Source: Alphaproteobacteria bacterium (GTDB taxonomy: Bacteria; Pseudomonadota; Alphaproteobacteria; UBA3830). Taken from it: a DNA stretch of 47,733 nucleotides. The stretch is taken from the NCBI GenBank assembly GCA_015062335.1, contig SUUU01000005.1:1-47733 (forward strand), written 5' to 3'. The notes under the pieces are model-generated. The model was given only the letters and a program-made list of their open reading frames with translations, was not told where the DNA came from and did no database searches. Both the position numbers and the translations under genes were made by a program. Numbering within the stretch: position 1 is the stretch's first letter; every line of letters starts with the position of its first letter. Of this stretch, positions 28,879 to 31,140 are shown one piece after another.

Positions 28879-31140
28879 ATGTTTAAAAAGTTTTTGAAAG
28901 TCTTACAAACAACGGCAATTTTGTGGCTGGCTATTTTAATCCCTGTTGTCCTGGTTTTTTCGTATGTAAAAACATCATCCAAGACAGACATCTTGAAATA
29001 CATTGACTCATATATGGATTCAGAGGCCACATGCTTATCAAAATATGTCGGCCTGCAATTAAATGATACAAATAAAGATCTTTTAAGATTGTCAGATTCC
29101 GTCATTGCAAAGATACAAGCACAAGAGAAAGACATAAATGATCTCATAAAGAAAGATAACAACATCGTAGCTTTGAGTGCCTATGATTCTCAAGGAAAAG
29201 CAATACTCAGATCAGACAAATCAGAAGATCAATTGTTAGATGTTTCTGAAAGAACTTTATCCGATCTGAAGAATGAAGACATAACATTTCATTTAAAGCA
29301 ACTGGACGACGGCAACGTCGCCATCGTCTACACTATGCGAAGAGATTTTGATGATTCCAAAAACAAAATGTTTTTAACAGTAACAATGAAATGGTCACAA
29401 TACGAAAGCTTCTTAGATCGGTTACAGGCAGGAGTATATCCTCGTAAGTTCTACATTATTTCTCCGGATTGCCAAAGGTATTTATCCTTAAATTCTCTTC
29501 CAAAAGGAGCTGAAAGCAATAGAAATCTAATTGCTTTAGGATTGCACTTAGCCGACAAGATAAAAACTATAAAATTGGGATTCTCTAACTTAAATCTTGA
29601 AGGCTTCTCATACAGAATATTCAAAAGTGAAATTAAACTACCCGCTAAAGTTGACGGCAGCCAATTATTTATCGTTGCAGTAACCGATAATGAAGCCTAT
29701 GAAATAATGTCCAGAGGAATGTTCAGTAGTTTACCTACCGTAATTTGTATTATATTATTCCTGTGGTTGTTAATTAGCTTTATTGTTGCCAAAATAAATG
29801 GTGAAGCTCAAAATAAGTTAAACTTAGCAAATACGATTACCGATTTCACTCCGTCTGCCGTTGTGGTATTTAATACCGAAACAGGAAAAATCGAAAAAAT
29901 CAATAGATCAGGCCTGACTTTACTGCGGATTAATAAAGAAAAAACCGGAGATACTAATGTCTGGGATATTTTTACGTCCGACAAGGATCGAGAATACATA
30001 AAAAATGCAGCTCAATCAGGCATCAGTGTTCTTAATTACGAAATTCTTATCCAAAGTTTCGGAGGAGCGCCATTCTGGTCAATTTGCTCAGCAAGCCCGA
30101 TAACAATTAATTCTAAATCGTATATCGTGCTATCGGCTCTGGATATTAATCGCCGCAAAGAGGCTGAAAAAAAATTAGCTAACAATGCTGAGCTATTAGA
30201 AAAACAAATCGCCGCACGCACTGCAGACCTAGAACAAAAAGTCGCGGAAACTCAGGAATTAATCTCGCAATTAGAGCAGGCAAAAAAGGAAGCAAATACA
30301 GCAAATGCCGCAAAAACTCGATTTTTAACTTGCATGAGCAATGAATTGAAAACACCTATAAATGCAATTTTAGGATATGGCGAAATTTTAAAAGAAGAAG
30401 CTGAAGAGCGTAAAGACAATGTGACCGCCGATGATTTATCAAAGATAATAGGATCAGCCAAGCACTTGTTGTCCTTAGTAAATGAAATTTTGGATCTGTC
30501 TGCAATCGAAGCCGGAAAAACTCAACTGTATTTTGAAAATGTACTTTTATCGTCCATCATTAAAGAAATAGAAGGAGTGTCCTTACCTTTGATGTCGCAA
30601 AATGACAATCAACTGTTCATTGAGGCTCCAAAAGATCCCGGAGAAATGTATACCGATCAGACCAAATTACGTCAAAGCTTATTAAATCTGATAGGGAACG
30701 CCGCCAAATTCACAGAATTCGGCAAAATTACACTCCGAGTTTCTTCAATAGTAAGAGAAGGGATAGATTTTATTGAATTTTCAGTTATCGATACAGGGTG
30801 CGGAATTGGCGCTGAACATTTAGAAAATATTTTTGAAAGCTTCCATAATGATTCTGATACGAATGCGGGAACTGGATTAGGCCTAACTATAACAAAAAAA
30901 TACGTGGAAAGTTTAGGAGGAAGCATTTCCGTTGAAAGCACACCAAACGTAGGATCAAAATTCATTATCAAAGTGCCGAGAATTTGTACCGTAACTTCAA
31001 GCGATACGGTCGAAGTAAAGAATCAGACTGAACAAGATCAACTTGATGATATAATTTTATCTACTGAAGAAGCGATTGCCGATATTGAAGGCTCAAAAGA
31101 CGCGCAAACATTTTCTCGATTATCTGATCAATTGGAGTAA
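28879..31140 (+). CDS. Sensor histidine kinase homologue lacking the phosphoacceptor His
   Basis: A 753-residue membrane sensor. Membrane helix about 11-31, periplasmic sensing region about 32-270 (Cache-like by layout), second helix about 278-305, PAS domain about 315-430, coiled coil about 430-480, HisKA-type dimerisation region about 478-545, HATPase about 590-705. The H-box reads FLTCMSNELKTPINAI, so the expected His is Asn488 (codon AAT at 30340-30342; one base from CAT). ATP-binding boxes are intact: NLIGNAAKFT (N), DTGCGIG (G1) and GTGLGLTI (G2). AGGTG lies before the chosen ATG at 28879; a GTG one codon earlier is possible. The acidic tail extends about 40 residues. A pseudokinase-like role is possible. 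Confidence 0.85.
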   Translation: MFKKFLKVLQTTAILWLAILIPVVLVFSYVKTSSKTDILKYIDSYMDSEATCLSKYVGLQLNDTNKDLLRLSDSVIAKIQAQEKDINDLIKKDNNIVALSAYDSQGKAILRSDKSEDQLLDVSERTLSDLKNEDITFHLKQLDDGNVAIVYTMRRDFDDSKNKMFLTVTMKWSQYESFLDRLQAGVYPRKFYIISPDCQRYLSLNSLPKGAESNRNLIALGLHLADKIKTIKLGFSNLNLEGFSYRIFKSEIKLPAKVDGSQLFIVAVTDNEAYEIMSRGMFSSLPTVICIILFLWLLISFIVAKINGEAQNKLNLANTITDFTPSAVVVFNTETGKIEKINRSGLTLLRINKEKTGDTNVWDIFTSDKDREYIKNAAQSGISVLNYEILIQSFGGAPFWSICSASPITINSKSYIVLSALDINRRKEAEKKLANNAELLEKQIAARTADLEQKVAETQELISQLEQAKKEANTANAAKTRFLTCMSNELKTPINAILGYGEILKEEAEERKDNVTADDLSKIIGSAKHLLSLVNEILDLSAIEAGKTQLYFENVLLSSIIKEIEGVSLPLMSQNDNQLFIEAPKDPGEMYTDQTKLRQSLLNLIGNAAKFTEFGKITLRVSSIVREGIDFIEFSVIDTGCGIGAEHLENIFESFHNDSDTNAGTGLGLTITKKYVESLGGSISVESTPNVGSKFIIKVPRICTVTSSDTVEVKNQTEQDQLDDIILSTEEAIADIEGSKDAQTFSRLSDQLE

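What the first reader, a model, noticed from the sequence alone, without database searches (positions are those of the whole stretch)
28879..31140. Histidine kinase with Asn in place of the phosphoacceptor His
The H-box reads SNELKTP; the codon AAT at 30340-30342 is one substitution from CAT. The ATP-binding N, G1 and G2 boxes are intact, so selection appears to keep the nucleotide site while autophosphorylation on the His cannot occur. It may be a dominant regulator, a heterodimer partner or an early pseudogene.
Basis: partly seen in the sequence, partly recalled or inferred. Interest (0 to 1): 0.65.

Follow-up and report, generated by a model that had tools for sequence, protein, structure and literature searches.

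The report
Ancient histidine kinase lacking its histidine
A bacterial sensor protein that looks like an enzyme of the phosphate-signalling type has lost the one amino acid that carries the phosphate, and its relatives across a whole bacterial family have lost it too while the rest of the protein stays conserved, so it probably signals without phosphate.

Summary
The ORF at 28876/28879-31140 encodes a sensor (weak dCache)-PAS-HisKA-HATPase protein with Asn (AAT, 30340-30342) at the phosphoacceptor His. It is not an error or a young pseudogene. All 36 orthologues found (36 of 40 genomes of the window's family) lack His: Asn 27, Val 5, Ser 2, Ile 1, Thr 1. ATP-site residues are kept, whole-gene dN/dS is 0.03-0.09, and the DHp domain is the most conserved part.

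The nearest His-bearing relatives keep the His (7 of 7 in a sister family). One nearest relative sits beside a single-domain response regulator. The sister family has that regulator (4 of 5 genomes); the window's family apparently does not (0 of 40). So this kinase seems to have lost its partner and its His, yet was retained.

In the same genomes DivK (Asp to Asn, 34 of 34), the PleD receiver (30 of 30) and DivL (no His or Tyr, 30 of 30) also lack phosphosites. CckA and NtrY/NtrX kept theirs.

Best reading: a pseudo-histidine kinase acting without phosphate through its docking surface, gated by sensor and ATP. The partner is unproven, and a phosphatase-only role remains possible. New variant of a known kind (pseudo-histidine kinases such as DivL).

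The parts
28876..31140 (+). pseudo-histidine kinase gene (start GTG 28876 or ATG 28879)
28966..29730 (+). extracytoplasmic sensor region between two membrane helices, weakly dCache-like
   Evidence: dCache_1 in 9 of 30 orthologues, best E 0.002, not in P0001 itself; limits approximate, by eye and from the weak model
29854..30147 (+). PAS domain (residues 327-424)
   Evidence: PAS_9 36.3 bits; 30 of 30 orthologues
30310..30516 (+). HisKA/DHp domain (residues 479-547), the most conserved region
30340..30342 (+). AAT, Asn489 in place of the phosphoacceptor His
30343..30357 (+). ELKTP with Glu490 and Thr493 of the ExxT motif
   Evidence: E 36/36, T 35/36
30655..30978 (+). HATPase_c domain (residues 594-701)
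30685..30714 (+). N box
   Evidence: N604, N608, K611, T613 invariant in 30 of 30
30790..30810 (+). G1 box DTGCGIG
   Evidence: D639, G641, G643 invariant in 30 of 30
30868..30885 (+). G2 box GTGLGL
   Evidence: G667, L668, G669, L670 invariant in 30 of 30
30985..31137 (+). poorly conserved tail; the related kinase L276 has two receiver domains after its HATPase
26030..27022 (+). intact response regulator, possible but unproven partner
   Evidence: acceptor Asp kept 30 of 30; near the kinase gene in the window and in 2 of 20 other stretches

Best explanation
It is an ancient, family-wide pseudo-histidine kinase. Shown: it cannot carry phosphate at the canonical site, since the His is absent in all 36 orthologues, while sensor, PAS, DHp and ATP-binding domains are kept under purifying selection. 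Shown for the genomes searched: the single-domain response regulator that accompanies its His-bearing relatives was not found in this family. Inferred: the protein now works as a membrane sensor whose ATP-bound catalytic domain and dimeric DHp act as a phosphate-free switch. Sensor and nucleotide state set the DHp conformation, and the conserved DHp docking surface binds and restrains another signalling protein. The likeliest targets are the other parts of the network that lack phosphosites in the same genomes (DivK with Asn53, DivL), and through them the intact CckA branch. The target is the least certain step.
For: No His in 36 of 36 orthologues. Codons AAT/AAC, AGT/TCC, ATC, ACA and GTN at the site; the fewest state changes on the tree, with nine His-bearing relatives counted as H, is 5. 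Purifying selection: whole-gene dN/dS 0.03-0.09 in the 10 of 11 pairs where it could be computed; DHp entropy 0.44 against 0.98 (CA) and 1.86 (sensor); the site has five residue types while S488, E490, K492 and P494 do not vary. ATP-site residues invariant in 30 of 30 (30 of the 36 orthologues were given). Nearest kin with His: 7 of 7 sister-family kinases, whose best hit among five kinases of the window's genome is this protein (7 of 7). Relative L276 overlaps a single-domain regulator of the type found in 4 of 5 sister genomes; 0 of 40 family genomes show one (best hits 35% identity or less, frames of 247 aa or more). Parallel losses: DivK 34 of 34 Asn, PleD REC1 30 of 30, DivL 30 of 30. Controls kept: CckA His 30 of 30 and receiver Asp 29 of 29, NtrY His and NtrX Asp 30 of 30 each. 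Precedents, passages read: DivL (PMC4211667), RocA (PMC7028121), Osp (PMC9430884).
Against: No physical or genetic link to DivK, DivL or CckA was found; the gene is not next to them. The DHp-CA tree puts it outside the DivJ/PdhS-like and DivL kinases (quick tree, modest support), so DivK is not its inherited partner. Glu and Thr of ExxT are conserved, which a pure scaffold would not need (though they may be structural). The structure prediction was useless (mean pLDDT 35.8). ATP binding is predicted, not measured.
Confidence: 0.48

Rival explanations
1. Phosphatase-only kinase: it can no longer phosphorylate but removes phosphate from an intact response regulator, for example the one at 26030-27022, using the conserved Glu/Thr of ExxT and the ATP-bound catalytic domain.
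For: E490 36 of 36 and T493 35 of 36, whereas DivL in the same family lost that Thr in 30 of 30. ATP site intact. The His is not essential for HisKA phosphatase activity (PMC12632262, section 6). The 26030 regulator is intact in 30 of 30, found in 35 of 40 genomes and lies 1.9 kb upstream in the window.
Against: The regulator lies near the kinase gene in only 2 of 20 other stretches. ExxT residues may be kept for structure. [quoted passage not shown] DivK and PleD cannot be substrates.
Confidence: 0.27
2. Heterodimer partner or trans-acting catalytic domain: it pairs with another kinase and inhibits or phosphorylates it, as RetS does with GacS or RocA with CovS.
For: Conserved DHp and intact ATP site; pseudokinases that act on a partner kinase are known (PMC7028121, PMC9491836, passages).
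Against: The other kinases of the genome (CckA, NtrY, a RegB-like one, DivL) are far more distant than its relatives outside the family, which makes a mixed DHp dimer less likely.
Confidence: 0.15
3. A different residue of the protein takes the phosphate and the protein is still a kinase.
For: Intact ATP site; Ser or Thr at the site in 3 of 36.
Against: Asn, Val and Ile (33 of 36) cannot be phosphorylated. The neighbouring invariant Ser488 is usual in active kinases too. No cognate regulator found.
Confidence: 0.06
4. Sequencing error or decaying gene.
For: One orthologue (L055, G046) has an in-frame TAG.
Against: 36 of 36 without His, 35 of 36 reading frames without an internal stop, dN/dS 0.03-0.09.
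Confidence: 0.02

Closest known systems
DivL of Caulobacter crescentus (pseudo-histidine kinase, Tyr550; PDB 4q20)
   Same: HisKA-HATPase protein without the His, kept in evolution, in an alphaproteobacterial signalling network; profile match to 4q20 at 2.2e-32
   Different: Not an orthologue: the genome has its own DivL (best PDB hit 4q20). DivL binds ATP weakly (PMC4211667, passages); here the ATP-site residues are intact. Asn, Val, Ser, Ile or Thr instead of Tyr.
RocA of group A Streptococcus (pseudokinase interacting with CovS)
   Same: membrane protein of the histidine kinase type that works without a phosphoacceptor
   Different: RocA lacks several catalytic-domain residues and keeps a dispensable His (PMC7028121, passages); the reverse here
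Hybrid kinase L276 (genome G036) and sister-family kinases L026, L027, L030, L105
   Same: 42-44% identity over DHp-CA; L276 has the same sensor-PAS-HisKA-HATPase order
   Different: They keep His; L276 has two receiver domains and an adjacent single-domain regulator
Osp of Rhodobacter sphaeroides
   Same: receiver-like protein that inhibits CckA and is thought not to be phosphorylated, a possible model for the phosphosite-free DivK of this family
   Different: a receiver, not a kinase; unrelated to this gene; its D51N form worked poorly (PMC9430884, passages)

Membership tests
HisKA-type histidine kinase | HisKA and HATPase_c domains above the curated cut-off | tested here: met
HisKA-type histidine kinase | phosphoacceptor His in the H-box | tested here: not met
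   Asn489; 0 of 36 orthologues have His
HisKA-type histidine kinase | autophosphorylation | not testable with these tools
   needs biochemistry
Pseudo-histidine kinase (functional class) | acceptor lost while the gene stays under selection | tested here: met
Pseudo-histidine kinase (functional class) | acts in signalling through protein contacts | not testable with these tools
   partner unknown
DivL | orthology to DivL | tested here: not met
   a separate DivL exists in the genome; separate branch in trees
PleC/DivJ/PdhS kinases of DivK | falls with DivJ/PdhS-like kinases in a DHp-CA tree | tested here: not met
   (quick tree; kinases labelled by their NCBIfam matches, none over the curated cut-off; no kinase was identified as PleC by name)
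Phosphatase-only histidine kinase | Glu and Thr/Asn of the ExxT/N motif | tested here: met
   E 36/36, T 35/36
Phosphatase-only histidine kinase | a phosphorylatable partner regulator | tested here: inconclusive
   26030 regulator intact 30 of 30 but linkage weak

The most novel reading that the evidence does not exclude
In this alphaproteobacterial family a whole branch of two-component signalling has been converted to phosphate-free working. The pseudo-kinase (His to Asn), DivK (Asp53 to Asn), the PleD receiver and DivL form or feed one network that signals by nucleotide-gated and receiver-docking contacts alone and sets the still phosphate-driven CckA branch.
Probability: 0.22. Interest if true: 0.82.

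Novelty: new variant of a known kind. Interest (0 to 1): 0.6.

Why it matters
Pseudo-histidine kinases and pseudo-receivers are counted in databases (0.9% of HisKA, 2.0% of receivers; PMC12632262), but the same review says that how pseudo-receivers are switched is a mystery. Here a kinase without His and a DivK without Asp are fixed together across one family, next to intact CckA and NtrY/NtrX controls. That is a natural experiment: it shows that the proteins are worth keeping after the phosphate chemistry has gone, and gives a compact set (one kinase, DivK, PleD, DivL) in which phosphate-free signalling can be tested directly.

Tried and rejected
Rejected. (1) PleC/DivJ orthologue with DivK as inherited partner: my first idea; dropped after the tree, the single-domain regulator next to L276 and its absence in the family. 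(2) Using sister-family single-domain regulators (L110-L113) as DivK orthologues: their alpha-1 helix differs from Caulobacter DivK while the window family's DivK shares L17, D20 and L22 and has Tyr at F18 in 30 of 30, so they are no orthologous control for Asp53. (3) Asn as a specially selected residue: rejected, five residue types at the site. (4) Conserved operon: rejected, neighbours change.

Led nowhere. Single-sequence AlphaFold model (mean pLDDT 35.8), no fold search made. ChpT was not searched. Script errors, repeated after correction; residue labels printed are one off (corrected). My first attempt to hand in was malformed and nothing was taken.

Literature. Searches listed no paper on a family-wide His-less kinase with intact ATP site together with an Asn53 DivK; subscription papers are not held. 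In PMC4426382 (passages) one Wolbachia PleD receiver carries Asp to Asn. PMC2877005 (passages) reports DivJ-PleC-DivK missing in Rickettsiales.

Full report
What is there. The ORF 28876/28879-31140 (+) encodes 754 or 753 residues with HisKA, HATPase_c and PAS_9 domains above Pfam cut-offs. The H-box is FLTCMSNELKTP, with AAT at 30340-30342. The sensor region is weakly dCache-like: dCache_1 appears in 9 of 30 orthologues, best E 0.002, and not in the window protein itself.

Orthologues. A search of 40 genomes of the window's family found a match at E up to 1e-90 in 36, in all 6 genera and in 18 of 18 genomes at least 90% complete; the four misses are 55-88% complete. In the alignment of all 36 the column has Asn 27, Val 5, Ser 2, Ile 1, Thr 1, never His; ATP motifs remain, with some variation in the first residues of G2. 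Two of the 36 rows are partial (L025 at a contig end, L055 cut by an in-frame TAG). In an alignment of 30 of them N604, N608, K611, T613, D639, G641, G643 and G667-L670 are invariant.

Selection. In 11 close pairs, Nei-Gojobori dN/dS over the whole gene is 0.03-0.09 (10 pairs; one saturated), 0.01-0.12 over the catalytic domain, and 0.06 or less over DHp where it could be computed. Mean column entropy is 0.44 bits for DHp, 0.98 for CA, 1.32 for TM2/PAS and 1.86 for the sensor. Around the site S488, E490, K492 and P494 are invariant and T493 is kept in 35 of 36, while 489 itself has five residue types. The simplest history is one loss of His before the family radiated, followed by drift: Ser, Thr and Ile are one base from Asn codons. 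The parsimony count is 5 changes with nine His-bearing relatives as H. This is inference from a quick tree.

Nearest relatives. All five genomes of sister family f3 hold related kinases; seven loci, all with His. Each has the window protein as its best match among five kinases of the window's genome. The closest relative in a more distant genome, L276, is a 1043-residue hybrid kinase with sensor, PAS, HisKA, HATPase and two receiver domains, 44% identical over DHp-CA. Its stop codon overlaps the start of a 129-residue single-domain regulator. Regulators of the same type, with the EDNEMNRDML-like alpha-1 helix, occur in 4 of 5 f3 genomes. With one of them as query the 40 genomes of the window's family gave best matches of 35% identity or less, in frames of 247 aa or more, the lengths of CtrA and NtrX-like proteins: 0 of 40 show a single-domain regulator of this type. 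By inference the kinase lost its receivers, its partner and its His. A DHp-CA tree with 20 kinases of genome G036 and one of G035 puts it with these relatives and not with DivJ/PdhS-like or DivL kinases; support is modest and several branches are long.

Network context. The window's genome has eight HATPase matches; the kinases among them, read from sequence, are this protein, CckA, NtrY, a RegB-like kinase and DivL. Among receivers, DivK aligns with Caulobacter DivK 1m5t with Asn at Asp53. In the family Asp53 is Asn in 30 of 30 and in 4 more of the 7 remaining loci; the other 3 fetched stretches hold no DivK. The second acidic residue is Q, K, S, R or N in 30 of 30, while alpha-1 residues L17, D20, L22 and Lys105 (29 of 29) agree with Caulobacter. 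PleD keeps GGDEF in 30 of 30 but has no Asp in its first receiver in 30 of 30. DivL has Thr 17, Ile 8, Val 4, Ala 1 at the site, with Glu, Asp or Gly for the ExxT Thr and a degenerate G1 (30 loci of 34 genomes with a match). Controls in the same genomes: CckA His 30 of 30 and receiver Asp 29 of 29, one cut; NtrY His and NtrX Asp 30 of 30; the regulator at 26030 keeps its Asp in 30 of 30. The losses are therefore selective.

How it may work. Canonical phosphotransfer is excluded at this site. The remaining intact features are sensor, PAS, coiled coil, DHp surface and ATP site. I think a phosphate-free conformational switch is most likely (0.48), with DivK, DivL or CckA as candidate targets; this target is inference only. 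DivL is the precedent: it lacks kinase and phosphatase activity yet reads DivK~P (PMC4211667, passages). Osp shows that a receiver-like protein thought not to be phosphorylated can inhibit CckA (PMC9430884, abstract and passages). A phosphatase-only role (0.27) is the strongest rival: ExxT is kept, and an intact orphan regulator lies 1.9 kb upstream, although it is near the kinase gene in only 2 of 20 other stretches.

Limits. Tree methods were quick. No structure of use was obtained. Pseudo-histidine kinases are a known kind; what is new here is a family-wide case with intact ATP site and absent partner, accompanied by loss of phosphosites in DivK, PleD and DivL.

Noticed in passing
L050:1444-1860 (-), genome G000 contig C10; 33 further family loci: DivK with Asn at the phosphoacceptor Asp53 in 34 of 34 family loci read, with the Caulobacter-like alpha-1 helix kept.
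   Followed up: yes
L050:195-1520 (-), genome G000 contig C10: PleD-like protein downstream of DivK: first receiver without Asp in 30 of 30, GGDEF intact in 30 of 30; what now regulates the cyclase is unknown.
   Followed up: partly
L036 (genome G000 contig C15): DivL with Thr, Ile, Val or Ala at the His/Tyr position and a degenerate G1 box in 30 of 30.
   Followed up: partly
window 26030-27022 (+): Orphan response regulator with intact phosphosite, in 35 of 40 family genomes, with a C-terminal half of no known Pfam family.
   Followed up: partly
window 41972-45316 (-): 1114-residue ORF without any Pfam match at 0.001.
   Followed up: no
window 14594-17227 (-): 877-residue protein with weak TcfC-like (usher) and carboxypeptidase-regulatory-like matches below cut-off.
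   Followed up: no
L177 (genome G046): CckA frame has a TAA and the receiver part is not in the same frame; the same genome has an in-frame TAG in the kinase orthologue L055 and one in DivL, which may be assembly errors or decay.
   Followed up: no
window 1565-1922 (+): Alphaproteobacterial tmRNA of the permuted type.
   Followed up: no
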